64,000 bases of DNA from Yersinia mollaretii ATCC 43969 (GTDB lineage Bacteria > Pseudomonadota > Gammaproteobacteria > Enterobacterales > Enterobacteriaceae), in assembly GCF_013282725.1 (NCBI RefSeq), contig NZ_CP054043.1:3472001-3536000 (forward strand), given 5' to 3'. Of the stretch, positions 3,524 through 64,000 are shown piece after piece. Every line of letters starts with the position of its first letter. The stretch's first letter is position 1. The notes beneath the pieces were generated by a model. It searched no databases. It was given only the letters and a program-made list of their open reading frames with translations, and had not been told where the DNA came from. Made by a program: the position numbers and the translations under genes.

Positions 3524-3524
3524 T

Positions 3525-5645
3525 ATGACGAATTCGACGTCAACTCAGGTTATTCAGCCACTTGCGGCATTAGCGCGTGCTGCGGCGTGTTTTGATCTGG
3601 CGGTTGAGCCATCCCAATTAGCCCATCAGCTGGGATTATCCCCCGAGAAGATAGATAGCATCGCGCTGTGCCGCTGCGCGGGTTGGATTGGTTTACGGGC
3701 TAGAAAGGTCTATCAACAGTTGGAGCGCTTGGGCAATCTGGCGCTGCCCATCCTGTTCAGTGATGGTGCGCAGTGGTATGTGTTGCTGGCGCTGAGTGAT
3801 CACGGGGCGGTAATTTATTGTGCGACCAATGGTCAACAGCAGTCAATCAGTCAGCCGGAACTTGCCCGCTTGTGGTCTGGTGAAGCCATCTTACTGGCGA
3901 AAGCCGAGCGGCAGGAGCAGAAGAAAACCACGTTTGGTTTTGGCTGGTTTATCCCCGTGATTGCTAAGTATCGACACCAACTGCGCAACATTGTTTTGGT
4001 GTCATTGTTGCTACAGAGCATTTTGCTGGTGACACCGATGCTGTTTGAAACGGTGATCGACAAAGTCTTGGTGAGTCGGGGTGTCGGCAGCTTAATAGTG
4101 TTAGGCAGTGCGATGATTGCACTGGCGATCGCCGAACCCTGCTACACCTTTTTGCGTGGCTGGCTGTTCTCCCATCTCTCCAGTCGGGTGGGGGCAGAAC
4201 TCAACACCCGCCTGTATCGCCACTTATTGGGGTTGCCGCTGGGTTACTTTGGTGCGCAACAAACCGGGCAAACGATCGCTAAAGTTCGTGAAATGGAGCA
4301 AATTCGCAGCTTTCTGACGGGATCAGCATTAACGATGCTGCTGGATCTGATTTTTGTCGGCACCTTTATCGCGGTGATGTTTTGCTACAGCAGCCAACTG
4401 ACATGGATAGTGCTGTTTTCGCTAGTGTGTTATCTGCTGTTTTGGTGGGCGGTGGGCGGCGTATTACGTAAGCGGGTTGAGCGCCAATATGAAACCAGTG
4501 CACAAAACACCGCTTTTCTGACGGAAGCCATTAGCGGGCTGGAGACCATCAAAACCTCGGCAACGGAACGCCAGTTCAATCGAGGCTGGCGGCAATCATT
4601 AGCGGGCTATGTACGGGCTTCATTTGCCTGTGCACGGATGGCAAATATTGCTGAGCAAGGTATCACGCTTATCAATAAAATCACCTCGGCGATCCTGTTG
4701 TGGCATGGGGTGAAGTTGGTTTTAGCGGGGGAACTCACCCCAGGGCAATTTATCGCGTTTACCCTCTTTTCAGGCTATGTCACTCAACCTATCTTGCGTC
4801 TGGCGCAAATATGGCAAGATTTCCAGCACACGCAAGTGGCGCTGAAACGGATTGGCACTATTCTAGATTGCCCGACAGAGCCGGGGAGTGCCGGGTTGTC
4901 GTCTGGGAGTGAACGAACAGGGAGTTTGGCTTTTAAACAGGTGCGCTTTCGCTATCGACCTGACACTGCCGAAGTGTTGCAAAATCTCAATCTGGAGGTT
5001 GCGGGTGGCGAGTTTATTGGCATTACCGGGCCATCGGGTTGTGGCAAATCCACCTTAACCAAACTCCTACAGCGGCTCTATATCCCTCAGCATGGGCAGA
5101 TTTTGGTTGATGGGCAGGATCTCGCCATTACGGATGCCACCTCATTACGCTGTCAAATGAGTGTGGTTTTACAAGATAGTGTGTTGTTCTCCGGCACCAT
5201 CAGGGACAACATCTGTCAGTGCCGACCGACGGCAGATGAGGCTCAGGTAGAGCATATTGCCCGTCAGGCGGGCGCGCATGATTTTATTATGTCACTGCCG
5301 CAGGGGTATCAAACGCAGGTTGGGGAGCGAGGTTGTATGCTCTCTGGCGGGCAGCGGCAGCGGGTGGCACTGGCAAGGGCGTTGATGGCGGACCCTAAAA
5401 TTCTGATTCTTGATGAGGCCACCAGTGCGCTGGATTATGAGTCAGAGGCGGCCATTATGCGCCAGTTGCCGGAGATCATCCGCAATCGTACTGTCATCTG
5501 TATAGCCCATCGGTTGAACACCCTGCGTCAATGTCACCGCATTGTGGTGATAAAAGAGGGGCAAGTTTTGGAGCAGGGCAGCCATCAGGCACTGCTGGAT
5601 CAGGCGGGTGCTTATGCGCGATTGTGGCAATTGCAAACGGGGTGA
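3525..5645 (+). CDS. rtxE: Second type I secretion ABC transporter, RtxE-like
   Basis: Second HlyB-family exporter ATPase (706 aa) of the same operon, preceded by a GAGGGAG ribosome site. It has a degenerate C39-like domain (about 1-125), a transmembrane domain (about 145-430) and an ATPase domain. The latter carries Walker A GPSGCGKST (about 502), LSGGQRQRVALARAL, Walker B ILILDEATSALD and AHRLNT. Both nucleotide-binding domains of the pair look complete. It is clearly diverged from rtxB over its whole length, so it is not a recent duplicate. In V. cholerae the two ATPases RtxB and RtxE act together with RtxD and TolC. The same heteromeric pump is inferred here. The gene ends just before a hairpin and faces araA. 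Confidence 0.83.
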   Translation: MTNSTSTQVIQPLAALARAAACFDLAVEPSQLAHQLGLSPEKIDSIALCRCAGWIGLRARKVYQQLERLGNLALPILFSDGAQWYVLLALSDHGAVIYCATNGQQQSISQPELARLWSGEAILLAKAERQEQKKTTFGFGWFIPVIAKYRHQLRNIVLVSLLLQSILLVTPMLFETVIDKVLVSRGVGSLIVLGSAMIALAIAEPCYTFLRGWLFSHLSSRVGAELNTRLYRHLLGLPLGYFGAQQTGQTIAKVREMEQIRSFLTGSALTMLLDLIFVGTFIAVMFCYSSQLTWIVLFSLVCYLLFWWAVGGVLRKRVERQYETSAQNTAFLTEAISGLETIKTSATERQFNRGWRQSLAGYVRASFACARMANIAEQGITLINKITSAILLWHGVKLVLAGELTPGQFIAFTLFSGYVTQPILRLAQIWQDFQHTQVALKRIGTILDCPTEPGSAGLSSGSERTGSLAFKQVRFRYRPDTAEVLQNLNLEVAGGEFIGITGPSGCGKSTLTKLLQRLYIPQHGQILVDGQDLAITDATSLRCQMSVVLQDSVLFSGTIRDNICQCRPTADEAQVEHIARQAGAHDFIMSLPQGYQTQVGERGCMLSGGQRQRVALARALMADPKILILDEATSALDYESEAAIMRQLPEIIRNRTVICIAHRLNTLRQCHRIVVIKEGQVLEQGSHQALLDQAGAYARLWQLQTG

Positions 5646-5673
5646 TCAACGGGGATGTTGATGGAGTCAAGTG

Positions 5674-5695
5674 TCCGCGCCAGAGATGGCGCGGA
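5674..5695. terminator. 8-bp stem hairpin between rtxE and araA
   Basis: Inverted repeat TCCGCGCC/GGCGCGGA with a 6-nt loop, 29 bp after the rtxE stop. No T-run follows on either strand, so it may assist the neighbouring terminator rather than act alone. Confidence 0.45.
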
Positions 5696-5700
5696 TCTCG

Positions 5701-5729
5701 GCCCCAAGCTAAGCAAAGGGGCGTTTTGT
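5701..5729 (+). terminator. Probable terminator of the rtxBDE-like operon
   Basis: GCCCC and GGGGC pair across a 12-nt loop and are followed on the plus strand by GTTTTGTT. It sits between the convergent rtxE and araA 3' ends and could serve both. Confidence 0.55.
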
Positions 5730-5733
5730 TCAC

Positions 5734-7236
5734 TCAGCGATTCAGGTGGTAATAGACTTCGTTCCAGCGAATCTCATTTTTAAATGCTGGAAGAGTGGTG
5801 TCGTTATCAATCAGCAAGAACTCAATGCCATGCATTTCAGCATACAGGCGCAGTTCATCGACACCGATGGCTTGCGAGAACACAGTATGATGCGCGCCAC
5901 CCGCGATGATCCAAGCTTCGGCAGCGGTGGCCAGTGAGGGCTGTGCTTGCCAGATGGCGCGGGCCACCGGGAGTTTTGGCAAGGGGTGCGGTTGCTCAAC
6001 GGTATCAACCACATTGACTAATAGGCGGAAACGATTCCCCATATCAATCAAACTGGCATTCAGCGCGGGGCCAGCTGGCGTCGAGAAGATCAGTCGCGCA
6101 GGGTCTGCTTTACCGCCGATACCCAGATGTTGCACGTCCAACAGCGGTTTCTCTTCTTTGGCAATAGAAGGGCAAACTTCCAGCATATGGGAGCCGACCA
6201 CCAGATCATTACCCGGCTGGAAATTATAGGTGTAATCCTCCATAAATGAGGTGCCGCCTTTCAGGCCACTCCCCATCACTTTCAAAATACGTAGCAATGC
6301 CGCCGTTTTCCAGTCGCCTTCGCCACCAAAGCCGTAACCTTGTTGCATCAGGCGCTGCACTGCCAACCCCGGTAACTGCTTCAACCCATACAGATTTTCA
6401 AAGTTGGTGGTAAAGGCTTTAAAGCCGCCTTGCTCCAGAAAACGCTTCATGCCTAACTCAATTCGCGCCGCATCCAGCAAATTCTCGCGCTTATTGCCAT
6501 TCAACTTCACCGCATCCGTCAAACGATAGGTGGCTTCATACTCCTCCACCAAGGTATCAATGTCGCCTTTGCTAATGGCATCGACCACCGCGACCAGATC
6601 ACCAATACCGTAGGCATTAACGGAGTAGCCAAACTGGATTTGGGCTGCAACTTTATCGCCCTCTGTCACTGCCACTTCGCGCATATTGTCGCCAAAACGG
6701 GCCACTTTCAGCTGTTGGCTCTCCTGTTTGGCTGCCGCCACCCGCATCCATTGACCGATGCGCTGGTGGGCTTCTTTATCCTGCCAGTGGCCAGTAATTA
6801 CACTGTGTTGCTGGCGCATACGGGCGCCGATAAAACCAAACTCACGGCCACCGTGGGCGGTTTGGTTGAGGTTCATAAAGTCCATGTCCATGGTTTCCCA
6901 CGGAATTTGCGCATTAAATTGAGTGTGGAATTGCAGCAATGGCTTATTCAGAATCGTCAGACCACCAATCCACATTTTGGCTGGGGAGAAGGTATGCAGC
7001 CAAGTCATTATGCCGATACAGGCAGTATCGTAGTTTGCCTCACGACACAGGGCGGTAATTTCATCTGGCGTAGTGACCAAGGGTTTCAGCACCAACTTGA
7101 TGGGCAGACCCGCTTCGCTGTTTAGGCTGTTGACCACCTGATGGGCATTATCCATCACTTGTTGTAGGGTTTTAGGGCCATACAGATTTTGGCTGCCGAT
7201 GACGAACCACACTTCGGATTGTTTGAATACGTCCAT
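5734..7236 (-). CDS. araA: L-arabinose isomerase
   Basis: Cytoplasmic enzyme converting L-arabinose to L-ribulose, the first step of arabinose catabolism. The protein is 500 aa, the same as E. coli AraA, and is near-colinear with it. Conserved blocks include [25 protein letters not shown]-independent [15 protein letters not shown] and [10 protein letters not shown]. The ATG at 7236 has a GGAG site 6 nt upstream and matches the family start; an in-frame TTG at 7248 would swallow that site. It lies 66 bp downstream of araB in the same operon. No araD follows, because the next gene is the convergent rtxE. Confidence 0.96.
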
Positions 7237-14403: not shown

Positions 14404-15453
14404 ATGGCTGAAAAAATAAAAGTGGGTCTACTGGGCTACGGCTACGCCAGTAAAACTTTCCATGCGCCGCTGATTATGGGCACACCGGGGCTAGAACTGG
14501 CAGGGGTGTCCAGCAGTGATGCCAGTAAAGTGCATGCTGACTGGCCCACAATGACGGTTGTTTCAGACCCGCAAGCACTATTTGATGATCCTTCCATCGA
14601 CCTCATCGTGATTCCCACCCCCAATGACACCCATTTCCCGCTGGCCCAAAAAGCACTGGCGGCAGGCAAACATGTGGTGGTCGATAAACCTTTCACTGTG
14701 ACACTGTCACAAGCGAATGAACTGAAACGGCAGGCCGAGGAGGCCGATTTACTGCTCTCGGTGTTCCACAATCGGCGCTGGGACAGTGATTTCCTGACAC
14801 TCAAAACTCTACTGGCCGAAGGTGCGCTGGGAAAAGTGGTCTACTTTGAGTCTCATTTTGACCGCTATCGCCCAGAAATTCGCCAGCGCTGGCGTGAGCA
14901 AGCTGGGGCTGGCAGTGGTATTTGGTACGACTTGGGACCACATTTGCTGGATCAGGCACTGCAACTGTTTGGTCTACCAGAGACGCTGAATGTGGATTTG
15001 GGGATGTTGCGGCCCGGCGCGGAGTCCGTGGACTATTTCCATGCAGTTCTCAGCTATCCGGGACAGCGCGTTGTACTGCACGGCACGGTTCTGGCGGCAG
15101 CAGAAACGGCACGTTACATTGTGCACGGGATGCAGGGCAGCTACATCAAGTTTGGTCTGGACCCACAAGAGGATCGGCTGAAAGCGGGTGAGCGTTTACC
15201 GCAGGCGGACTGGGGTTATGATATGCGCGATGGTGTGGTGACACTGTCACATGATGGTGTTCTGGCTGAGAAGCCGCTGCTGACATTACCGGGTAATTAT
15301 CCTGCTTATTATGCTGGTATCCGTGATGCTATTTTGGGCACTGCACCGAATCCTGTTCCGGCCTCAGAAGCAATTAAAGTGATGGAGCTGATTGAGCTGG
15401 GTATGGCTTCCGACCAACAGAAAAAAGCGCTGCCAGTTTCGTCAGCAAACTGA
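14404..15453 (+). CDS. ydgJ: Gfo/Idh/MocA-family oxidoreductase YdgJ
   Basis: Predicted NAD(P)-dependent cytoplasmic dehydrogenase of unknown substrate, 349 aa. The N-terminal Rossmann fold shows VGLLGYGYASKTFHAPLI; the EKP-like catalytic motif is VVDKPFTV; the C-terminal domain has SGIWYDLGPHLLDQAL. The sequence is close to E. coli YdgJ throughout and its position beside add is the E. coli arrangement. A GAGGGAAAC ribosome site precedes the ATG. A yfeH-like gene follows after 40 bp and may be cotranscribed. Confidence 0.92.
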   Translation: MAEKIKVGLLGYGYASKTFHAPLIMGTPGLELAGVSSSDASKVHADWPTMTVVSDPQALFDDPSIDLIVIPTPNDTHFPLAQKALAAGKHVVVDKPFTVTLSQANELKRQAEEADLLLSVFHNRRWDSDFLTLKTLLAEGALGKVVYFESHFDRYRPEIRQRWREQAGAGSGIWYDLGPHLLDQALQLFGLPETLNVDLGMLRPGAESVDYFHAVLSYPGQRVVLHGTVLAAAETARYIVHGMQGSYIKFGLDPQEDRLKAGERLPQADWGYDMRDGVVTLSHDGVLAEKPLLTLPGNYPAYYAGIRDAILGTAPNPVPASEAIKVMELIELGMASDQQKKALPVSSAN

Positions 15454-28042: not shown

Positions 28043-28977
28043 CATTTCGCTTCTTCAATATACAAATATAATCTTGGCACCAACAGCCGCAACGGCTTGG
28101 CATCTGGCTTGTATTTATGCTTAATTTGGCGGACATCGTAGTTGGTTAACTCACCTAATTTGGGCAATTCAACCATTGATTGAGACTGACAAAAAGCAAT
28201 CAGTGGCATAGGGCAGGGGTGTTGTACCTGCTTTTGTTGCTCTTGATACCAAACTCGCGCGATAGGCTGCACTTTAACTGGCCGCTTTATCTTCAACTTT
28301 GTTTTTTCCGGCAAGCGATGAATATCGTTGATTTCGACGCTAATTGACTCTACCCATTGTTCTCGGGTGAAAGGTGGCACGGCCCGACCTGCATTCAGGC
28401 TTTTGTCTAACTGCACCAATATCTCTTCGCGGGTCACATTCTTTATAATATGTTTGTTAGCCCAACCAAAACGCACTGAACTGGGGTTTAATAGCGGCGT
28501 GATCGTGCGATAAGTATTCAGAGTGATCAGCCCATGCAAATGAGTATGCACAAATTCGAAACGCTGTTCACTGGGTAGCCCTGACTCGACCGTGATGATC
28601 TGTTCTAATTCGGTCTTTAACTGATTAATTTCACGAATGGTATTTTGGCATTCACTCAATTGATTATCTGTCACAGAGAAACAGAGTACACCGGGGAGGC
28701 GTAGGGCGGCTTTGCTACTGGTATTTTGCCCTTGGTGGTGAAGGAATAGCCGCTGATAATGTTGTAACCCCAGATCTCTGGCTTGATGGCCCACAGTCGC
28801 TGTTACAGCAATTTGCTCGATGGGGTTATGCTCGGTACCTTTCTCAATTTCAGGTAGCGAAAATACCCGGGCAGCAAGCAAAGGAAGATCAATGAGTTGC
28901 TGGTGGAGGAGCTGCAATTCAATCTCCAGTGAAGCAAATCGAGTATTTAAGCGTTCTATCAAATCATACTTGTTCAT
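28042..28977 (-). CDS. tus: Replication terminus site-binding protein
   Basis: Monomeric DNA-binding protein that forms polar replication fork barriers at Ter sites; 311 aa (E. coli 309). Basic throughout, with Tus blocks RFGWANKHIIKNVTREEIL, HTHLHGLITLNTYRTI, IKRPVKVQPIARVWY and a basic end KHKYKPDAKPLRLLVPRLYLYI. A Ter site lies 24 bp upstream of the start codon, as in the autoregulated E. coli tus-TerB arrangement. Also next to fumC as in E. coli. Confidence 0.95.
   Translation of the reverse strand: MNKYDLIERLNTRFASLEIELQLLHQQLIDLPLLAARVFSLPEIEKGTEHNPIEQIAVTATVGHQARDLGLQHYQRLFLHHQGQNTSSKAALRLPGVLCFSVTDNQLSECQNTIREINQLKTELEQIITVESGLPSEQRFEFVHTHLHGLITLNTYRTITPLLNPSSVRFGWANKHIIKNVTREEILVQLDKSLNAGRAVPPFTREQWVESISVEINDIHRLPEKTKLKIKRPVKVQPIARVWYQEQQKQVQHPCPMPLIAFCQSQSMVELPKLGELTNYDVRQIKHKYKPDAKPLRLLVPRLYLYIEEAK
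28211..28218 (+). other. KOPS octamer
   Basis: GGGCAGGG on the plus strand, matching GGGNAGGG, left of dif and pointing towards it. Inside tus on the antisense strand. Confidence 0.5.
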
Positions 28978-29112: not shown

Positions 29113-29120
29113 GGGCAGGG
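29113..29120 (+). other. KOPS octamer
   Basis: GGGCAGGG on the plus strand in the tus upstream gap, pointing to dif. Confidence 0.5.
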
Positions 29121-39466: not shown

Positions 39467-40039
39467 TCAACGTCTGGACGGCCGCTGACGTACCTCATCA
39501 CCCGTATTAGGGTTAAGTGTTAATGTATCGATTATCGATAGTAATGCGACCACGCCAATCACCACAAACGCTATCTGGAAATTTTCCAGTGGGATGGTGC
39601 CCTCACGATAGGGGTGAAACCACTCGGCAACCCGTAGAGCCAGCGCCCCAATGGCGATTCCCAAGCCCATTGAGAGCTGCTGCGCCATGTTGGAGAAGGT
39701 GTTGGCGCCGGACATTTTCGGCGCTGGCACCTCGGAATAGGCCAAGGTATTGAGTGCAGTAAACTGCATAGATCGCGTTAATCCACTGATAAAAAGGAGC
39801 AGGACTATCAGCGCATGGGGTGTCTCAGGTGTCATCAATGCATAAGCAAAGATGGTGACGGCATTCAGTAAACCATTGACCAGCAGTGTAGGGCGGAAAC
39901 CAAAGCGGTACAGGATTGCGGAGGTAAAAGGCTTCATCGCCAAGTTGCCCGCAAAAACCGCCAAGACCAGATTTTCCATAAAGAAAGCACCTGCCACCAA
40001 CAGCGGCAGAGCCGAACCACGCATTGCTGACTGGCTCAT
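39467..40039 (-). pseudogene. C-terminal remnant of an MFS transporter
   Basis: 190-aa frame corresponding to the C-terminal part of a DHA2-type MFS exporter (FAGNLAMKPFTSAILYRFGFRPTLLVNG, LNTLAYSEVPAPKMSGANTFSNMAQQLSMGLGIAIGA; quoted in pieces). The first transmembrane helices and the N-terminal motif A are absent. The sequence upstream of 40040 shows no continuation in any frame. No credible ribosome site. Most likely a 5'-truncated pseudogene near dif. Confidence 0.75.
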
Positions 40040-40294: not shown

Positions 40295-40573
40295 TTATTT
40301 TTTCTTGTAGACATCGGCTGTAGCATGAATTTTTGTATTGGTATTGGCGGATGTTACAACAAAATAATCACCACCCAATTCATCGGCCTTTTTAGATAGC
40401 TCTTCTTTGGCATCACTTGGTGCCAGTTCACCAGCCGTGACAATAGTGCCAATTTTTTCATATTGGCCGGGACTTTTGCTCAGTTCATCTTTAGTTAACA
40501 ATTCGGCGGCGATAGCGCCGGAAGAGAATGCACCCAACAGAACTAACATCGTCATTGCTTTAAATAGTTTCAT
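40295..40573 (-). CDS. DUF1471 periplasmic stress protein (YdgH/BhsA family)
   Basis: 92 aa with a signal peptide ending IAA (about 22 residues). One DUF1471 domain follows (YEKIGTIVTAGELAPSDAKEELSKKADELGGDYFVVTSA, in pieces, ending in KIHATADVYKK). Members of this family respond to envelope and biofilm stress in E. coli. ATG 40573 has a GAGGA ribosome site. Confidence 0.85.
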   Translation of the reverse strand: MKLFKAMTMLVLLGAFSSGAIAAELLTKDELSKSPGQYEKIGTIVTAGELAPSDAKEELSKKADELGGDYFVVTSANTNTKIHATADVYKKK

Positions 40574-40779
40574 AGTAATCCTCGGTTCAAAGATATTGAT
40601 AACCATGTGGAGCCTATTTGTATAGAAGTATAAGTATTGTTGTCATCACTGGTTTTATCCAGTTTGTGGCGTATCTTTCGGATTGTTGAACATTGAGGGT
40701 TGAGATCGGGCGTTATCAAGATAAACCTGAACCAGTAATGACAGCGCCCAAAACCCCAGATTATGCCTATCGCCATGAT

Positions 40780-40807
40780 GGTGCGCATAATGTATATTAT
40801 GTTAAAT
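40780..40807 (+). other. dif: dif site for XerCD chromosome dimer resolution
   Basis: Identical over all 28 bp to E. coli dif as I know it. The XerC arm is GGTGCGCATAA, the centre TGTATA, the XerD arm TTATGTTAAAT. It lies in a 441-bp gap between the DUF1471 gene and an MFS gene (40574-41014) that otherwise holds nothing I can support. The site is single and intact, with no filamentous-phage or XerCD-mobilised insert beside it. Confidence 0.97.
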
Positions 40808-41014
40808 TGAATATGGCGATACGCACCCCGCGTTTGGCCTGTGGTTCTGATGCTGCTCACCTCTTCTTTCTTCTTGTTTTGTTAGCAGTTTAAAACTAAA
40901 TGATAAAATCGGCCGATCGCGCTACATGAATTCTGTGCTAATGGCAGCACCATAAGGCGCAGAATCCACCCAGCTTAACCGATACAAACACCCCATCTAA
41001 CACTCGCACACCAA

Positions 41015-42259
41015 CTAACTCTGCGATTTCACTCGCGGTGCATTATCAAGTTGCCTAATCGATGGTGTAAAACTGGTGGCAATAGTCGCTATCACCACAG
41101 CCATGGCTGAGGCCAGTAAAACTGTCGAGCTACCAAAACGCATAGCAAGTGGCCCCGCAGCCAGTTCGCCGACGGGAATGGCAATAAATGAGCCTAAAGC
41201 ATCATAAGCATAAACACGCGCAAGTTTTTCGGGCGGAATATGCGTTTGTAGCGAATTCGCCCACACCACGCCAAATTGCCCAAAACCGACCCCAGCAATA
41301 AAAAATCCGCCCATGAGAATGGCTGTCGAAGAGATCATACTGAGGAGAATAATCGGGACAGCACTCAGTGAAACCAATACCACACCCACCAACAGATCCC
41401 GCCGTGGACGCCATCGCAGCGCAATAAATGATCCGAAAATCAGACCGATACTTTGCGCGGCCACAATCATTCCCCACCCTACTCGCCCAAATGAGGCGTC
41501 CGCCACGATGGGGCCAAGGATCATCACTACGCCGCTGAAAGCCGCATTAACAATGGTGAACTGGACAACGATTGACCAGACCCATGAGCGAGCAATGAAC
41601 TCTTTCCAGCCATCACGCAGATCCTGCAAGATATTGGTGGTTGATTCGAGAGACAATGCCGGGTTGGTTCGAACAAAGAAATAGAGCGGCGCGGCGGCGG
41701 CAAATCCCAAAGCATCAACAGCCAAGCCCCATCCCGGCCCAATTGTGCTGGTCAAAACACCCCCTAGCGAAGCACCAATGATCGTGCCTGCATAGATTCC
41801 CACTTGGATAAAGGCATTCGCTGCTCGGAGGTGAAATGCGGGGACGGTCTGTGGAACCATTGCCGAAGAGGCTGGCAGTGCAATGCCAGCGGCGGCACCA
41901 TTAATGGTGCCAAGGAGAGCCAATCCCATGATGGTGGCTGTTCCGTCGAGCACTAACCAAGCAACCACCCCTTGGGATAAGGCGGCAATGGTCGATGATG
42001 ACAGCAGAACAAGACTTCGGGAATACCGATCCGCAAGTACGCCACCAATCAATAAGAAGGCGACATTGAAAATAGAACGGGCGGCGACAACCAGACCTAA
42101 ATCCGCAGCGGAACCGCCGATATCCAGCACGGCAAAAGCCAAGGCAATCGGCGCGATGCCATTGCCCAACACGGTGAGAAGACGGGCAAAAAATAGGTTT
42201 CTAAAGGGCGCATAATGAAACAAATGTCGGGAGTATGGCGCTGTTGCAGGTGTATTCAC
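41015..42259 (-). CDS. MFS exporter (EntS/DHA3-like)
   Basis: 414-aa protein with about twelve hydrophobic segments. MFS motif-A-like loop GVLADRYSRSLVLL, and HYAPFRNLFFARLLTVLGNGI at the N-terminus as in EntS/macrolide-efflux-type proteins. The substrate is unknown. GTG start at 42259, with GGAG 8 nt upstream. Its upstream region contains three tandem 16-bp repeats (42325-42372). No regulator gene is adjacent. Confidence 0.85.
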   Translation of the reverse strand: MNTPATAPYSRHLFHYAPFRNLFFARLLTVLGNGIAPIALAFAVLDIGGSAADLGLVVAARSIFNVAFLLIGGVLADRYSRSLVLLSSSTIAALSQGVVAWLVLDGTATIMGLALLGTINGAAAGIALPASSAMVPQTVPAFHLRAANAFIQVGIYAGTIIGASLGGVLTSTIGPGWGLAVDALGFAAAAPLYFFVRTNPALSLESTTNILQDLRDGWKEFIARSWVWSIVVQFTIVNAAFSGVVMILGPIVADASFGRVGWGMIVAAQSIGLIFGSFIALRWRPRRDLLVGVVLVSLSAVPIILLSMISSTAILMGGFFIAGVGFGQFGVVWANSLQTHIPPEKLARVYAYDALGSFIAIPVGELAAGPLAMRFGSSTVLLASAMAVVIATIATSFTPSIRQLDNAPRVKSQS

Positions 42260-42476: not shown

Positions 42477-43667
42477 ATGAAAAAAATAATTAAGCGGCTG
42501 GAGATCATTAAAAGCGCCATTGAGCTTGAAGATGATGACATTGTCCGCCAGCAACTTCCCTACCTTAAAAGTGAAGCTGAAGATGCCGCGCTGGTGTTTA
42601 TTGTCATGGCGATTGAGCAGGGAAAATTCAGTGACGCGCTGAAAGCCATTTCGGCGTGGCTGAACAACAAACATGGCGTGACACAGTGGCAGGATCTCGA
42701 ATTGGCTGCCTGCAAACTGGAGCTGAAAGCGCTGGAGGAGCAGTTACGCGAGTTAATCGATAAACGAAATGAGCGGATTCAGTTGCTCGATGACTTTAAC
42801 GATCTCTACCATGTCCGCCTTGGCCCGATCACCAAACAGATCCTGAATTTACGCAAGCAGTTGGCGGAGAGCACCCTGCGCAAAGCCGAGGCAGAAGCCC
42901 GCCGCAAAGAGCGCGACTATCGCAACTGCCAGCAATATATTGCTCAGGCCATCGATGAGTTGGCGGCGTTAAAGCAGCGCTGGCTATCGCTCTCCCCTAT
43001 TTCCAGCGAAACCATAGCGATACGTCAACAGATCCAACAACAAACCGAATTGGTGACCTCACTGCTGGCCGAAATCCAAGAGCTGGAAAACAGCTTTTAT
43101 TCGCGCAATACCGAATCAACCCGCAAAGCCCGTGAAGAGGCAAAAGAGAAATACGAAAGCTATCAGGAGCAGCAATATGATGCTGAGCAGCGGCATGACA
43201 GTGATCGAAAACTCTCTTCTGATCAGCGCCTTGAGCTAAAACGCTTGTGGCGGCAAGCCAGTCGGCTATGCCACCCCGACTTAGTGGCGGATGAGTTTAA
43301 AGAGAGAGCGCATCAGTTGATGGTCCAGCTCAATCAAGCTCGCCAACGAGGTGATTTCGCGGCGATCCATACTTTGCTGGAGAGTTTGAAGCAGGGGCTT
43401 GAGCCGCTGATGGCGAGCGACTGTATTGATGATCTTGAGCGACTTCGCCGGAAAATCAATGAAGTGAGAGACCAAATTGATGCCATGCTGCGCGAACTGG
43501 CTGAGTTGGAAGGCCAAGAGTCTTGGCGACTCGTCACCTCCCATGCCAATAAAGATGAGTGGTTCAAATCACAAGAGAAAGTGTTATCCAAGATCCTCAA
43601 CAGTCTGGAGCAACAACTCGAAGAGGCCGCCTCAGAGGTATTTCAATTCTGCGGGAGTATGAGATAG
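42477..43667 (+). CDS. Coiled-coil protein with a C-terminal J-like domain
   Basis: 396-aa soluble protein, rich in Glu/Gln/Arg/Leu. Helical N-terminal segment (1-75), long coiled coils (about 80-250, broken by short links), then a J-domain-like segment around residue 266 with the HPD tripeptide (RLCHPDLV). Helical stretches LKRLWRQAS before and AHQLMVQLNQARQRGDF after the HPD support this. A further coiled coil closes the protein. It may be a co-chaperone for DnaK-type proteins; the client is unknown. No clear ribosome site precedes the ATG. Confidence 0.75.
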   Translation: MKKIIKRLEIIKSAIELEDDDIVRQQLPYLKSEAEDAALVFIVMAIEQGKFSDALKAISAWLNNKHGVTQWQDLELAACKLELKALEEQLRELIDKRNERIQLLDDFNDLYHVRLGPITKQILNLRKQLAESTLRKAEAEARRKERDYRNCQQYIAQAIDELAALKQRWLSLSPISSETIAIRQQIQQQTELVTSLLAEIQELENSFYSRNTESTRKAREEAKEKYESYQEQQYDAEQRHDSDRKLSSDQRLELKRLWRQASRLCHPDLVADEFKERAHQLMVQLNQARQRGDFAAIHTLLESLKQGLEPLMASDCIDDLERLRRKINEVRDQIDAMLRELAELEGQESWRLVTSHANKDEWFKSQEKVLSKILNSLEQQLEEAASEVFQFCGSMR

Positions 43668-43739: not shown

Positions 43740-44591
43740 ATGATGAAAGATAACGAATACCAGCCCCCGAAGGTCTGGAGTGAAAACAGTGAAAGCGGTG
43801 GTGTGTGGTCTAAGATCAATCGGCCCACTGCTGGCGCTCGATATGAGGCCACCCTGCCCGTCGGCAAACATCCCCTCCAGCTCTACTCTATGGCAACCCC
43901 CAATGGGCAGAAAGTCACCATTCTGCTCGAGGAGCTACTGGCACTCGGCGAGAAAGGGGCAGAATACGATGCACACTTAATCCGCATCAGTGAAGGCGAC
44001 CAGTTCTCAAGTGGCTTTGTTGCCGTCAACCCCAACTCAAAAATCCCTGCGCTGATGGACCATTCAACGCCCACGCCAGTTAGGGTGTTTGAGTCAGGTG
44101 CGATTCTGCTCTATCTGGCCGACAAATTTGGTCATTTCCTGCCGAAATCCCACGCGGGCAGAACGGAAGCCCTGAATTGGCTGTTTTGGCTACAGGGTGC
44201 AGCCCCCTATTTGGGCGGCGGTTTTGGTCATTTTTATCACTACGCGCCGGTGAAAATTGAGTACGCGATTGACCGCTTCACCATGGAAGCCAAGCGCCAA
44301 CTCGACTTGCTCAACACCCTGCTGAAAGACCGCGAGTACATCGCCGGTGATGAGTATTCGATTGCCGATATCGCCATCTGGCCTTGGTACGGCAACTTGG
44401 TGCTGGGCCTGCAATATGAAGCGGGTGAGTTTTTGGATGTAAAATCCTACACCCATCTGCTGCGCTGGACCGAAAATATCGGCAAGCGCCCCGCGGTACA
44501 GCGCGGCCGCATTGTTAACCGCACGTGGGGTGCTCCCGAAGAGCAGTTGCCAGAACGGCACGACGCCTCAGACTTCGATCGTTTGAAGTAA
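43740..44591 (+). CDS. yghU: Disulphide-bond reductase / glutathione transferase YghU
   Basis: 283 aa, GST-like fold. Thioredoxin-like N-terminal domain (SMATPNGQKVTILLEELLALG, NPNSKIPAL, FESGAILLYLADKFG) and helical C-terminal domain (WLFWLQGAAPYLGGGFGHFYHYAP). Nearly identical block structure to E. coli YghU, which binds two glutathione molecules. AAGG ribosome site 6 nt before the first of two adjacent ATGs. Confidence 0.93.
   Translation: MMKDNEYQPPKVWSENSESGGVWSKINRPTAGARYEATLPVGKHPLQLYSMATPNGQKVTILLEELLALGEKGAEYDAHLIRISEGDQFSSGFVAVNPNSKIPALMDHSTPTPVRVFESGAILLYLADKFGHFLPKSHAGRTEALNWLFWLQGAAPYLGGGFGHFYHYAPVKIEYAIDRFTMEAKRQLDLLNTLLKDREYIAGDEYSIADIAIWPWYGNLVLGLQYEAGEFLDVKSYTHLLRWTENIGKRPAVQRGRIVNRTWGAPEEQLPERHDASDFDRLK
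43852..43859 (-). other. KOPS octamer
   Basis: CCCTGCCC on the plus strand, i.e. GGGCAGGG on the minus strand, right of dif and pointing back to it. Confidence 0.5.
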
Positions 44592-57422: not shown

Positions 57423-58412
57423 CTACTCTTTACCTCCCCCAGTCTCCTCCATTGAGAACCTTGCTGAAATCGCATCTCGCTCGTAGCCTTGTCGCTGAGT
57501 CAAAATAGTGTACAGCTCTGGGCGACGGCCATAGATCCAGCGCCGCCCGGTGCTGAGTGGGATCAAACTGAGATCTAACTGCGCGGTGACCATCATGTCA
57601 GCCGCCGCCCATGTCTCCTCAATAATGCGGCCATAAGGGTCGAGAATCATGGCATTACCGGTGCGCACCTCATCATCATCCGCGCCAATACAATTGCTGA
57701 ATAGGATAAATAGGCCATTATCATGGGCGCGCGCCGGTAACCAACGCATCAGCCATTCCCGACCATTGACGCCACGAATCGCAGCGGCCATCTCCTCTTC
57801 TCTTTCCGCACGTTGCTCCCACAGCAATACCGGAATGGGCTTCATCCCATACGGGCTACGCGAATTTGTCCCGCCAGTCTGATGTGGCGCTAATAGGATA
57901 TCAGCCCCCAATAACGTGGTCGCACGAACATTCTCGACCAGATTATTATCCCAGCAAATGAGAATCCCCACTTTAACGCCCCACGGGGTGTCAAAAACCG
58001 TGTAAGCATCCCCGCTGCTGATCGCCGGATGCTCAAATGCATGTAATTTCCGATGCGTATGGAGAGAACCATCGGGCATACAGGCCACATAGGCATTATA
58101 GAGCCGCCCGTCGTCTGCCAACTCAATCAGCCCCACGCCAATCAACATCTGATGTTTCACCGCCAAAGCGCGGACCAAGGCAATCGAGGGGCTGCTGTCA
58201 ATCGGTTCAGCTAAGGCGGTGACTTGATCCGCCGTCAGCTTAGGGACATGCCAATAGCCGGTAATGCACATCTCGGGAAAAGCCAATATTTGAATATGTT
58301 GCAAGGCCGCTTGCTCAATGTATTTTTCAATCACTAACAGATTATATTGCTTATTATTGGCTTGATGCTGGAACTGCACGGTTGCTGCTGCTATTAATTG
58401 TGACGTTGTCAC
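57423..58412 (-). CDS. Carbon-nitrogen hydrolase (nitrilase superfamily)
   Basis: 329 aa. Catalytic triad visible as Glu in FPEMCITGY, Lys in HRKLHAFEH and Cys in ILICWDNN. Hydrolyses an amide or nitrile; the substrate is unknown. Start: GTG 58412 with GGAGG 5 nt upstream; TTG 58424 would lie upstream of that site. Divergent from a LysR gene, its likely regulator. Confidence 0.85.
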   Translation of the reverse strand: MTTSQLIAAATVQFQHQANNKQYNLLVIEKYIEQAALQHIQILAFPEMCITGYWHVPKLTADQVTALAEPIDSSPSIALVRALAVKHQMLIGVGLIELADDGRLYNAYVACMPDGSLHTHRKLHAFEHPAISSGDAYTVFDTPWGVKVGILICWDNNLVENVRATTLLGADILLAPHQTGGTNSRSPYGMKPIPVLLWEQRAEREEEMAAAIRGVNGREWLMRWLPARAHDNGLFILFSNCIGADDDEVRTGNAMILDPYGRIIEETWAAADMMVTAQLDLSLIPLSTGRRWIYGRRPELYTILTQRQGYERDAISARFSMEETGGGKE

Positions 58413-59416: not shown

Positions 59417-60854
59417 AGGTGCGTAATTTGCGCGAGTGCAGTTGATCCCCCTCTGCCCGCAGCAAATCTATAGCCCGAATACCAATCTGTAAGTGCTCAG
59501 AAATCGCCCCTTCATAGAAATGGTTGGCCTGCCCCGGCAACTTGATTTCACCATGCAGCGGTTTATCCGACACGCAGAGCAAGGTGCCATAGGGCACGCG
59601 GAAGCGATAGCCTTGTGCCGCAATGGTGGCACTCTCCATATCTACTGCCACGGCACGACTTAAACTGAAGCGTAGCGCGGAAGCAGAAAAACGCAGCTCC
59701 CAGTTACGATCGTCTGATGTCACCACGGTGCCCGTGCGCAGCCGCTGTTTGACCTCGACGCCCGGCATTCCGCTAACCGCTTTGGTGGCGTCATAGAGTG
59801 CCCGTTGCACCTCGGCGATACTGGGGATCGGAATGTCCGGCGGCAGCACCGCATCCAGCACATGGTCGTCACGCAGATAAGCATGGGCCAGCACATAATC
59901 ACCAATGGCCTGACTTTCACGCAGCCCACCGCAGTGGCCGATCATCAACCACGCATGGGGCCGCAACACCGCCAGATGATCACAGATGGTTTTGGCATTC
60001 GATGGGCCAACACCAATATTCACCAGCGTGATGCCATGCCCACTCTCGGCGATTAAGTGATATGCCGGCATCTGATGTTTTTTCCACGCCAGATCAGAGG
60101 TGGTTCTTTCTGGATCGGCATTTTCCGCCGTGATGTAGCTGCCCCCGGCGCAGGATAACGCTTTGTAGGGGCTGGTCGGGTCTAGAATTTGCTCACAGGC
60201 CCAACTGACAAACTCATCAACGTAGCGGCTGTAATTGGTAAACAGAATATAGGGCTGAATATGTTCTGCTGGCGTGCCGGTATAGTGTTTCAGTCGCGCC
60301 AGTGAGAAATCGGTGCGCAGCGCATCAAAATGCGACAACGGAAAATCAGCAGAGTCGGTATCAATACCGTCGGTGATGGCATCGCCGATTTTCGCTAGAT
60401 CGGTGATCGGGAAGTGCTGCGCCAGCCCTGCCGTCATTGAGCGGTCAAGAATCAGGTCGGAACCATCGATCACAAAGGGATACGGCATCTCTTGTTGTGA
60501 CGGTGTCACTTCAAACACTGCACCATACTCACTCTCCAACAGAGTCAGTTGCTCGGTCAGGTACTCCCGAAACAGAGTTGGCCGCGTCACCGTGGTGCTG
60601 TATTGGCCGGTGCGCGAGAAACGACCATAGGCGCGAGTGCGTTGATGGTCGCGGAATCGCCCATCCCAACTGACACTCAGTTGCGGATAGGAAAACAGCC
60701 CCTTGGCTCGCTCGCCCACATCTGGCAGCGCGCCGTCACGGATAAAGGCGCTGATAGCATCACGTAATGCCGCCAGCGCCGACTCATATAACGTCTCCAG
60801 TCGATCAATCGCCTCGGTGGCCGAGAGATGAGTTGTCACTTGTGATTGATTCAA
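59394..60854 (-). CDS. amn: AMP nucleosidase
   Basis: Cleaves AMP to adenine and ribose 5-phosphate, balancing purine pools; 486 aa (E. coli 484). The C-terminal two thirds are almost identical to E. coli Amn (VNIGVGPSNAKTICDHLAVLRP, MIGHCGGLRESQAIGDYVLAHAYLRDDHVLD, in pieces). Start is TTG 60854 with AAGGAG 6 nt upstream, the only start that gives the family length; no ATG lies near it. Confidence 0.93.
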   Translation of the reverse strand: MNQSQVTTHLSATEAIDRLETLYESALAALRDAISAFIRDGALPDVGERAKGLFSYPQLSVSWDGRFRDHQRTRAYGRFSRTGQYSTTVTRPTLFREYLTEQLTLLESEYGAVFEVTPSQQEMPYPFVIDGSDLILDRSMTAGLAQHFPITDLAKIGDAITDGIDTDSADFPLSHFDALRTDFSLARLKHYTGTPAEHIQPYILFTNYSRYVDEFVSWACEQILDPTSPYKALSCAGGSYITAENADPERTTSDLAWKKHQMPAYHLIAESGHGITLVNIGVGPSNAKTICDHLAVLRPHAWLMIGHCGGLRESQAIGDYVLAHAYLRDDHVLDAVLPPDIPIPSIAEVQRALYDATKAVSGMPGVEVKQRLRTGTVVTSDDRNWELRFSASALRFSLSRAVAVDMESATIAAQGYRFRVPYGTLLCVSDKPLHGEIKLPGQANHFYEGAISEHLQIGIRAIDLLRAEGDQLHSRKLRTFNEPPFR

Positions 60855-61138: not shown

Positions 61139-62515
61139 GTGGCGAAATCATTTTTACGCAGTGGTAGTTTGGACGATATTCTGGCGTTGGGCGAAAACGG
61201 GCAACCGGTTTATGCTTCAGCGCTTCAGATCAGAGAGGCATTGCGCCTTAAAAAACAGCAGCATATTGCTGATTGCCTCGCCATTCCTCAGCTCAATGAG
61301 CAAGGCGACCGCATTGACTGGTATGCCCCCATTGAAGGTAAAGTGACCTCATGGATCGCGGCCAGTCATGCAGAACGTAAAGCCGCGATTAAGCAGCTCT
61401 CTGCCTGTCTCTCCAGCGCCAATGACTTGTGCCAACGCGCGCAAAAATCAGATAAAGCGGCTCAACGGCTCTTCGGTGTCCTGCTCGCCAAAACCCTGCA
61501 ATTCCCTGATCAGAGTTATGTCTATTTAGTGGCGGGGAAGCCGGTGCTCACCTTCTGGGGCTTTGTCAGTCAGGATAAAAAGACGCGCACCGATCCACTC
61601 GATTGCTTACGTCAAACCGCCGACATTATCGAGCCGCCGATCACCACCCTGAGTGCCGCGCCGCTGGCGCCGGTTGCCCCGCCGGTAGCTGCTGTCGTCG
61701 AGTTGCCCCCTGAACCAGAGCTCCCTCCTGCGCCGCTGCCTACCCCTGTTGCAGAACCGACACCTCCGGTGGAACCAGTGAAAAAAACCGTTCGCTGGCT
61801 GCGATTCAGTTGGGTTCTGCCAGTATTGGCACTCATTATCGCATTGATAGTGCAATTCAGTGGCGGAATGACGGAAAAGGCCACGGCGGCCCCGGAGGTC
61901 AAAGCGGCGGTGGTTGAGTCGCCAGCGGCTGAAGAGCCAAAAACGGAAGAAAAAACCGCGCCCGCGGAGCCACCAATGCCTGCTAAGCCACCCATAAAAG
62001 TGGCCGCGCCCGCCGTCAAAATTATCCCACCGCTGCTGGAACCCCAGCTCCCGCTGGATAAAGCCACTGTGGCTCCTGCCCCCATCGCAGCTGAAGAGGC
62101 CGTCGCCCCTGAGCTAAGTGCTGCGGAGAGTAAAGGTGCGCTGATCTTACCTTCCGATGCGGTCAAAGTGGGTTCAACGGCCTTCCTGAATGGCAACTGG
62201 CGTGTCAGCCCAGACATTAAAGCCGCCCGGACAGGCAAAGCGCCGAGTCTGAGATATCAGATTAAAAACGGCAAAGGCACGGTAAAAATCACCCATGGCG
62301 ATAATGTCACTTGCCGCGCAAACATTACTGCCGGACTGATGAAGTCAGGCAATTTGGTGATCAATAGCCGTTATAAGGCGCAGTGTAGTGATGGCTCTAA
62401 ATATCAAATACCGGAGATCGTCTGTAAGCAAGGTTTGACCGGCGTTGCCGAGTGCAAAGGCCGTTACGACGCCAATACAACCCTTCCCATGACGATGAAG
62501 CGTGAGACTAAATAA
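61139..62515 (+). CDS. srfA: SrfA-like protein
   Basis: 458 aa, resembling Salmonella SrfA (MAKSFLRSGSLDD start). Globular N-terminal domain (1-165), Pro/Glu-rich linker (about 176-215), one transmembrane segment (about 225-243, WVLPVLALIIALIVQF), Ala/Pro/Lys-rich spacer and a C-terminal domain with four cysteines (CRANI, CSDGSKY, CKQG, CKGRY). Topology suggests a type II inner-membrane protein. GTG start; ribosome site AAAGG is somewhat distant. First gene of srfABC. The molecular role is unknown. Confidence 0.85.
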   Translation: MAKSFLRSGSLDDILALGENGQPVYASALQIREALRLKKQQHIADCLAIPQLNEQGDRIDWYAPIEGKVTSWIAASHAERKAAIKQLSACLSSANDLCQRAQKSDKAAQRLFGVLLAKTLQFPDQSYVYLVAGKPVLTFWGFVSQDKKTRTDPLDCLRQTADIIEPPITTLSAAPLAPVAPPVAAVVELPPEPELPPAPLPTPVAEPTPPVEPVKKTVRWLRFSWVLPVLALIIALIVQFSGGMTEKATAAPEVKAAVVESPAAEEPKTEEKTAPAEPPMPAKPPIKVAAPAVKIIPPLLEPQLPLDKATVAPAPIAAEEAVAPELSAAESKGALILPSDAVKVGSTAFLNGNWRVSPDIKAARTGKAPSLRYQIKNGKGTVKITHGDNVTCRANITAGLMKSGNLVINSRYKAQCSDGSKYQIPEIVCKQGLTGVAECKGRYDANTTLPMTMKRETK

Positions 62516-62519
62516 TATT

Positions 62520-64000
62520 ATGCTGGCAACGATCACTGATTTTAAACAGAAAATCACGCTTATTCAGGACAGTGGCATCCAGTTTCTGGACTTCGCGTTA
62601 AAGCCCGAATTCGATACTGAGCTGCCGAATAAATTTGTGCGCAAAAGTGCCAACGGCCCACTGCTGCGCTTGAATTACCATGCCCATAATGGCAAATACT
62701 CACTGATGATGCCGGGTGCTGCGCCTGAGATTGTTAAACCTGAATTTAGCTTTCCTCTGGAACAGTCGCTCAAGCTGCTGAACAAAATTTGGCTCCCCCT
62801 GCCATTTTTGCGCTTTAATCCCCCGCGCACCTTTGTTAATGGGCCAGACAACTGGGCCAGAGTGCAAATTTTAGTGTTGGACACGCCGGATCAAGATGGC
62901 AATACCCTGCGCGTCACCATGGCTTTTGATACCAAAGCCTATCCTGAAGGTCACGCCAATGAGTCCTTGGCCCCCAATGAAAATGACATCAAAACAGGTT
63001 TAGGTTTTGCGCTGGCCTACCACAATGAAGAGCTGGCAGAGTTCCTCGATTTGACGTGGGTTGACGGCTGGCTACGTGAAGTCTTTACTCAACAAGCGAG
63101 CGAACAAGAGGCGCGAACCGCACGGCATATCACCGCGTCGTTGCGTGAGTTTGAGTATCAAGCGCACTATCTTAATTTGTTGGAACTGCTGGGCAGCCAG
63201 ATTGGCGTACCCGAGATCAAAATCAATACCAGCACCTTGCAAGAGCCGGTCGTCAATGTTGATCTGATTCTGGATGTGGGTAACTCCCATACTTGCGGAA
63301 TTTTGGTGGAAGATCATGCCGATGAGAGTAACGGGCTAAAACAGACTTATGAGCTACAAATTCGTGATTTGAGCGAGCCTCACTCTCTGTATAACGAATT
63401 GTTTGAAAGTCGGGTTGAGTTTGCGCAGGCGAAGTTTGGTAAGCAGAATTTCTCCGTCGAGAGTGGTCGTGATGATGCCTTTATCTGGCCCTCAATAACT
63501 CGTGTTGGCCGCGAAGCTAGCCGTATGGCGCTGCAACGATTAGGCACCGAAGGATCTACTGGCATCTCCAGCCCACGTCGCTATTTGTGGGATGAGGAGA
63601 GCTATGCTCCGGGCTGGCGTTTCAATGAAACACAACACGGAACGCAGACACAGGAATCTCCGGCGACGGCATTGCCGTTGACCTATCTGGTGAATGATGA
63701 GGGTCAACCGCTGTATGGCCTGCCCGTGGATGAACGGCTACCGGTATTTGCCCCCCACTACAGCCGCAGCTCATTGATGACATTTATGCTGTCAGAGCTG
63801 CTGGCGCAAGCGCTGATGCAGATCAACAGCGTGGCGCAACGTCTGAAAATGACCCATGCCAATGCCCCACGCCAATTGCGAGCGATCATTCTGACCCTGC
63901 CCTCTGCCATGCCAAAACCGGAGCGCGAGATTTTCCGTCGTCGAATGCATGAAGCTATCGCCTTAGTCTGGAAATCGATGGGCTGGCATCCGGCAGATGA
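62520..64000 (+). CDS. srfB: SrfB-like protein, cut by window end
   Basis: Open frame from ATG 62520 to the end of the window (at least 493 codons; Salmonella SrfB is about 990). It starts 4 bp after the srfA stop, without a clear ribosome site. At about residue 250 ILDVGNSHTCGILVED resembles the phosphate-1 loop of actin/Hsp70-type ATPases. Further conserved-looking blocks are FIWPSITRVGREA and RAIILTLPSAMPKPERE. srfC is expected next. Confidence 0.85.
   Translation, partial: MLATITDFKQKITLIQDSGIQFLDFALKPEFDTELPNKFVRKSANGPLLRLNYHAHNGKYSLMMPGAAPEIVKPEFSFPLEQSLKLLNKIWLPLPFLRFNPPRTFVNGPDNWARVQILVLDTPDQDGNTLRVTMAFDTKAYPEGHANESLAPNENDIKTGLGFALAYHNEELAEFLDLTWVDGWLREVFTQQASEQEARTARHITASLREFEYQAHYLNLLELLGSQIGVPEIKINTSTLQEPVVNVDLILDVGNSHTCGILVEDHADESNGLKQTYELQIRDLSEPHSLYNELFESRVEFAQAKFGKQNFSVESGRDDAFIWPSITRVGREASRMALQRLGTEGSTGISSPRRYLWDEESYAPGWRFNETQHGTQTQESPATALPLTYLVNDEGQPLYGLPVDERLPVFAPHYSRSSLMTFMLSELLAQALMQINSVAQRLKMTHANAPRQLRAIILTLPSAMPKPEREIFRRRMHEAIALVWKSMGWHPAD
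63895..63902 (-). other. KOPS octamer
   Basis: CCCTGCCC on the plus strand (GGGCAGGG on minus), right of dif and pointing to it; inside srfB. Confidence 0.45.

What the first reader, a model, noticed from the sequence alone, without database searches (positions are those of the whole stretch)
40780..40807. Perfect dif site: the window spans the chromosome dimer resolution locus
All 28 bp match E. coli dif, in a short non-coding gap flanked by decayed and accessory genes. Many mobile elements (for example the Y. pestis filamentous phage) insert here through XerCD, yet this copy is single and unoccupied.
Basis: partly seen in the sequence, partly recalled or inferred. Interest (0 to 1): 0.75.

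Follow-up and report, generated by a model that had tools for sequence, protein, structure and literature searches.

The report
Ordinary dif site at chromosome terminus
This is the standard 28-letter dif site, where accidental double-length chromosomes of a Yersinia bacterium are cut back to single ones; it is real, well placed and ordinary, but the search for relatives met look-alike sites in a group of bacteria-infecting viruses that may be worth testing.

Summary
In detail: window 40780-40807 (+) is a 28/28 dif, the only match at up to 3 mismatches in the 4,603,534-bp one-contig genome. With gidA as oriC marker, dif divides the circle 49.4:50.6. GC skew is positive in 10 of 10 20-kb stretches left of dif and negative in 10 of 10 right; all 32 KOPS within 200 kb point at dif. 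Eighteen exact matS sites lie around it; XerC, XerD, FtsK-gamma and MatP are encoded. In the genus 24 of 25 genomes have one dif; the other is a contig that ends at its terminus. The same 28-mer is published for Y. pestis CO92 and E. coli K12 (PMC2731167). Ordinary and already known. By-product: Vequintavirinae phages carry one site with dif-like XerC/XerD arms and another centre; among 12 records chosen by capsid, 6 of 6 in or close to the subfamily have it, 0 of 6 outside. My searches of open-licence papers found no report.

The parts
40780..40790 (+). XerC-binding arm of dif (11 bp)
   Evidence: exact match; arm boundaries as in PMC2731167 (passages)
40791..40796 (+). dif central region TGTATA (6 bp)
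   Evidence: identical in 24 of 24 genus sites
40797..40807 (+). XerD-binding arm of dif (11 bp)
   Evidence: identical in 24 of 24 genus sites
40764..40825 (.). 13-nt inverted repeat around dif (arms 40764-40776 and 40813-40825, 92% complementary)
   Evidence: exact run of 9 bp here, 4-7 bp in the 23 other genus sites; probably incidental
40295..40606 (-). YdgH/BhsA/McbA-like small protein gene left of dif
   Evidence: PF07338
39467..40039 (-). apparent remnant of an MFS transporter gene
41015..42259 (-). MFS transporter gene right of dif
   Evidence: PF07690; relatives
28211..28218 (+). KOPS pointing to dif
   Evidence: offset -12569
29113..29120 (+). KOPS pointing to dif, nearest on the left
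   Evidence: offset -11667
43852..43859 (-). KOPS pointing to dif, nearest on the right
   Evidence: offset +3072
62481..62488 (-). KOPS pointing to dif
   Evidence: offset +21701
63895..63902 (-). KOPS pointing to dif
   Evidence: offset +23115
14698..14710 (.). matS site
   Evidence: exact match
15238..15250 (.). matS site
   Evidence: exact match
58400..58412 (.). matS site
   Evidence: exact match
60497..60509 (.). matS site
   Evidence: exact match

Best explanation
It is the chromosomal dif site of a Yersinia species, where the two replication arms meet. When homologous recombination joins sister chromosomes into a dimer, FtsK at the septum is steered by converging KOPS to the two dif copies, its gamma domain activates XerD, and XerC and XerD exchange strands at the 6-bp centre to give two monomers. 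Shown here: the site, its position, the KOPS, matS and skew layout, and the genes for the proteins. Inferred from E. coli (recalled): the recombination itself.
For: 28/28 match, single copy; 2,274,070 and 2,329,464 bp to gidA by the two ways round; skew positive in 10/10 and negative in 10/10 20-kb stretches on the two sides, cumulative-skew maximum within the +/-200 kb at 6.3 kb left of dif (median distance 7.3 kb for 161 chromosomal sequences in PMC2731167, passages); KOPS 16/16 and 16/16 convergent, the switch lying between -11.7 and +3.1 kb; 18 exact matS sites, all between 2.86 and 3.86 Mb; XerD 395.6 bits and XerC 358.3 bits, each over its curated cut-off; FtsK_gamma; MatP; 25 of 28 positions invariant in 24 genus sites while the flanks mostly diverge.
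Against: Nothing that speaks for another reading. Limits: oriC was placed by gidA only; beyond +/-200 kb the genome was sampled in 20 stretches of 20 kb, in which a few KOPS point the other way; the matS search at up to one mismatch gives no more than its reversed control (70 against 74), and no control count was given for exact sites alone; one genus genome of 25 shows no dif.
Confidence: 0.98

Rival explanations
1. The 28-mer is a junction or relic of an element that integrated through XerCD, not the working dif.
For: YpfPhi does integrate at dif in Yersinia (PMC4266046, passages).
Against: No second dif-like site at up to 3 mismatches; no Zot match in this genome; both flanking genes occur near dif in 6 of 20 relatives; the site is at the skew and KOPS switch.
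Confidence: 0.01
2. Chance match.
For: None.
Against: 0 of 100 shuffles; single in 24 of 25 genus genomes; position.
Confidence: 0.001
3. The inverted repeat around this dif is a functional add-on, for example a cruciform that presents the site.
For: An exact run of at least 9 bp came up in 21 of 20,000 composition shuffles of these flanks; single-strand DNA fold z = -1.99, 4 of 200 shuffles fold as well.
Against: Runs of only 4-7 bp in the 23 other genus sites; with 24 sites looked at the repeat is a weak signal, and it was noticed after the fact.
Confidence: 0.04

Closest known systems
dif of Escherichia coli K12 and of Yersinia pestis CO92 (table in PMC2731167; passages)
   Same: All 28 bp; the paper's criteria were single copy and closeness to the cumulative GC-skew maximum, both met here.
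   Different: Nothing in the 28 bp.
Filamentous phages that integrate at dif, such as YpfPhi (PMC4266046; passages)
   Same: They use this chromosomal site.
   Different: No sign of one here: no second dif-like site at up to 3 mismatches and no Zot match.
Sites in Vequintavirinae phages (by-product)
   Same: XerD arm identical in 14 of 14 aligned sites; XerC arm with 0-3 changes.
   Different: On phage genomes, one per record; centre never TGTATA in the 19 sites seen.

Membership tests
chromosomal dif (XerCD dimer-resolution site) | 28 bp: 11-bp XerC arm, 6-bp centre, 11-bp XerD arm | tested here: met
chromosomal dif (XerCD dimer-resolution site) | single copy in the chromosome | tested here: met
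   up to 3 mismatches
chromosomal dif (XerCD dimer-resolution site) | non-coding | tested here: met
   mechanical ORFs across the site were not tested as genes
chromosomal dif (XerCD dimer-resolution site) | at the terminus: opposite oriC and at the skew switch | tested here: met
   (oriC by gidA)
chromosomal dif (XerCD dimer-resolution site) | convergent KOPS around it | tested here: met
   16 of 16 on each side within 200 kb
chromosomal dif (XerCD dimer-resolution site) | XerC, XerD and FtsK gamma encoded | tested here: met
Ter macrodomain (MatP/matS) | exact matS sites grouped around dif and a matP gene | tested here: met
chromosomal dif (XerCD dimer-resolution site) | recombination by XerCD | not testable with these tools
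   needs an assay
XerCD site on Vequintavirinae phages | XerC-type and XerD-type arms around a 6-bp centre | tested here: met
XerCD site on Vequintavirinae phages | KOPS converging on the site, as for FtsK-driven dif | tested here: not met
   (rV5): 4-kb bins from 66 to 104 kb hold 3 KOPS, all towards the site; bins from 108 to 136 kb hold 1 towards and 2 away; the bin with the site holds 3, both strands
XerCD site on Vequintavirinae phages | recombination by host XerCD | not testable with these tools
   needs an assay

The most novel reading that the evidence does not exclude
The dif itself has no novel reading left. The boldest reading from following it concerns its relatives: the phage subfamily Vequintavirinae (rV5, PVP-SE1, phiTE and kin) carries one XerCD-type site per genome, placed somewhat like a chromosome terminus. 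In rV5 it lies in a 2.6-kb stretch without annotated genes between about 37 kb of rightward and 38 kb of leftward genes, at a GC-skew switch. The arms are kept while the centre differs from the chromosomal one, so the site would recombine phage with phage but not phage with chromosome: these phages would borrow the host's dimer-resolution enzymes for their own genome multimers.
Probability: 0.55. Interest if true: 0.65.

Novelty: already known. Interest (0 to 1): 0.22.

Why it matters
The dif site fixes the terminus of this chromosome and confirms textbook layout in one more Yersinia genome, no more. The side result could matter more: tailed phages regarded as strictly lytic that keep a host-type dimer-resolution site would be a use of XerCD that my searches did not find described, and it can be tested on E. 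coli K-12 deletion strains.

Tried and rejected
Occupied or tandem dif: not supported. The genus genome without dif (G002): 10 of 10 sampled stretches in its first half have negative and 10 of 10 in its second half positive skew, so its single contig ends at the terminus, and with 94% completeness a missing piece is likely; a true loss is not excluded. Using KOPS polarity to orient dif in G019: dropped, because convergent KOPS look the same from either strand. The inverted repeat as a conserved feature: rejected. Plasmid hits (506 records at E up to 1; 1 in near mode): not followed. Species of the window: not settled; the genus Yersinia is inferred because contigs of G004, G010, G014 and G018 have the same lengths as named Yersinia records. 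A Xer recombinase of rV5's own: tblastn with the host XerC and XerD gave chance hits only, best E 2.1; a distant recombinase would be missed.

Full report
Check of the observation. The 28-mer at 40780-40807 (+) is an exact dif, alone in the window at up to 3 mismatches and absent from 100 shuffles. The window is G000:C1:3472001-3536000 of a one-contig genome of 4,603,534 bases, and this is the only match at up to 3 mismatches in it. The genus is Yersinia by inference: contigs of the same-genus genomes G004, G010, G014 and G018 have the lengths of named Y. artesiana, Y. frederiksenii, Y. massiliensis and Y. proxima records. The species was not settled.

Placement. gidA, which lies beside oriC in E. 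coli (recalled), starts at 1,238,710, so dif at 3,512,780 divides the circle into 2,274,070 and 2,329,464 bp. Of 40 stretches of 20 kb, the 20 contiguous ones around dif have positive skew in 10 of 10 on the left and negative in 10 of 10 on the right; of the other 20, the 10 between 1.25 and 3.22 Mb are positive and the other 10 negative. The second switch lies between 1.04 and 1.25 Mb, where gidA is. Within 200 kb of dif there are 16 KOPS on each side and all 32 point to dif, the switch lying between -11,667 and +3,072 bp; in the more distant samples a few point the other way. The cumulative-skew maximum within this 400 kb is 6,308 bp left of dif; a median of 7,277 bp is reported for 161 proteobacterial chromosomal sequences (PMC2731167, passages). 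Exact matS sites number 18, all between 2.86 and 3.86 Mb, seven left and eleven right of dif; at one mismatch the pattern does no better than its reversed control, 70 against 74. About one exact site would be expected by chance from base counts (my estimate, no call). XerD, XerC, FtsK-gamma and MatP genes are present.

Comparison within the genus. Of 25 genomes, 24 have exactly one site at up to 3 mismatches. Over those 24, 25 of 28 positions are invariant and the other three at least 88% identical; the flanks mostly vary, apart from some bases near the core. G002 has none, but its single contig begins in negative and ends in positive skew, so the terminus is at the contig ends and dif may be in a missing piece. 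I fetched longer flanks for 20 of the 23 other genomes with a dif (about 7.8 kb or more on each side in 18 of 20, two cut by contig ends). Genes of the window found there by tblastn: ydfG in 19, the 396-aa gene (42477-43667) in 15, the MFS remnant in 13, the YdgH-like gene in 11 and the second MFS gene in 10 of 20, at variable distances from dif; in 5 of 20 none of the tested right-hand genes was found, and what lies there instead was not examined. In one, G019, the neighbours are reversed relative to dif: against several relatives the stretch from about -31 to +217 keeps the orientation of dif, while sequence from -36 outward on the left and, where it matched, from +316 or about +3.0 kb outward on the right is reversed. 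Zot, a marker of filamentous phages, matched in 1 of 25 genomes, 20.7 bits against a cut-off of 20.3, on another contig than dif. As far as that one marker tells, an empty dif is usual here.

What is known. The identical 28-mer is tabulated for E. coli K12 and Y. pestis CO92 in PMC2731167 (passages). YpfPhi insertion at dif is reviewed in PMC4266046 (passages); PMC2483231 treats the balance of the two replication arms in Yersinia (passages). The finding is correct and already known in kind.

By-product: phage sites. A loose search of the phage collection (E up to 10) with 1 kb around dif hit 180 records, among them Vequintavirinae; the matched piece is a 28-mer with dif arms and another centre. 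In 13 records chosen because they hit, the site is single in 13 of 13 (two of the records are partial). As a test not chosen by the site I took 12 of the 60 rows listed from a capsid search that matched 1,177 records, down the ladder of similarity. The site is present once in 6 of 6 that are Vequintavirinae by label (five) or close by capsid (PQ569687.1, labelled only 'Viruses', with one mismatch), and not found at up to 3 mismatches in 6 of 6 more distant ones: two Stephanstirmvirinae, one ICP1, one Pakpunavirus, one Felixounavirus and one Vibrio phage. Three of those six infect Vibrio relatives or Pseudomonas, whose dif differs (recalled), so a site fitted to them could be missed. That these phages are virulent is recalled, except that the rV5 abstract says lytic (listing).

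I aligned 14 of the 19 sites; left out were three Vequintavirus sites (FV3, typing phage 14, magaca), one Certrevirus (POP17) and one Seunavirus (PP856722.1). All 11 XerD-arm positions are identical in 14 of 14; the XerC arm varies at three positions; the centre is TGGGTA, TAGGTA, CGTGTA, GGTGTA, CGTGTT or GTTGTA, always with G at its fourth place where the chromosomal centre has A. The five left-out sites have TGGGTA, GGTGTA or CGTGTG. So none of 19 has the chromosomal TGTATA. The flanks mostly vary. In public viral contigs the exact arms with any centre were found in 33 stretches, 22 with TGTATA and 11 with ten kinds or fewer of other centres.

Placement of the phage site. In rV5 it is at 105142-105169 (-), in a stretch without annotated genes, 104014-106617. 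Annotated genes from 66,779 up to it are all on +, those from it to the record end and on to 6,602 all on -. The skew changes sign there, as it does at the other strand switches. In the 14 aligned sites, turned with the XerC arm on the left, mechanical ORFs on the left are mostly rightward in 14 of 14 and on the right mostly leftward in 13 of 14, though in six of those only narrowly; skew over 8 kb is positive on the left and negative on the right in 11 of 14, the exceptions being phiTE, KaOmega and ABPH49. The gap is not gene-free in all annotations: in PP856722.1 the site lies inside a short annotated hypothetical gene among others, in OP480062.1 the next genes to the right are rightward, and some other records list a hypothetical protein under the match.

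Reading of the phage site, inferred: a host XerCD site for phage multimers, kept from recombining with the chromosome by its different centre. Against it: KOPS in rV5 do not converge on the site as on a chromosome; these phages have circularly permuted genomes and are thought likely to package by headful (PMC7344957 for CB7 and phiTE, passages; permutation of rV5, PMC3606486, passages), which uses concatemers, so resolving them is not plainly useful. A decoy for XerCD or a site for another protein is possible. The rV5 paper marks a box as 'non-coding' (passages) and has no whole-word 'dif' or 'XerC' in its text. Searches without a report of such sites, seen as listings only: (193 papers with two of three terms, 20 listed, none of those naming Vequintavirus; 173 not seen; 0; 6; 2; 6; 9; 0), in open-licence papers only.

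Noticed in passing
phage records behind L086, L087, L171-L181 and L198-L203; rV5 DQ832317.1 105142-105169: Vequintavirinae phages carry one dif-type site with XerC/XerD arms kept and a non-chromosomal centre, in most of the aligned cases between rightward genes on the left and mostly leftward genes on the right.
   Followed up: partly
L082 (G019), about -31 to +217 around dif: A small segment with dif is in the opposite orientation to its surroundings compared with the other genus genomes (1 of 20 examined).
   Followed up: partly
window 40764-40776 and 40813-40825: 13-nt inverted repeat placed almost symmetrically around dif, without a like in 23 other genus sites.
   Followed up: yes
window 39467-40039 (-): MFS transporter frame that seems to lack the middle of the gene found in relatives.
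   Followed up: partly
L145 / L017 (G017), 344-7009: Tail module (sheath, tape measure, spanin-like) with a weakly repressor-like and a toxin-like small gene begins about 260 bp from dif, which lies near a contig end.
   Followed up: partly
L119, L124, L150 (viral contigs): Other viral contigs hold dif-arm sites with centres GACATA or TGTGTA; hosts unknown.
   Followed up: no
L182, 299-326 (microvirus PQ006980.1): A 28-mer with 5 arm mismatches and the centre TGGGTA, as in several Vequintavirus sites.
   Followed up: no
L209 (phiTE) and L218 (KaOmega), left flank of the site: The flank holds a palindromic stretch that recalls a Fur box (recalled, not tested).
   Followed up: no
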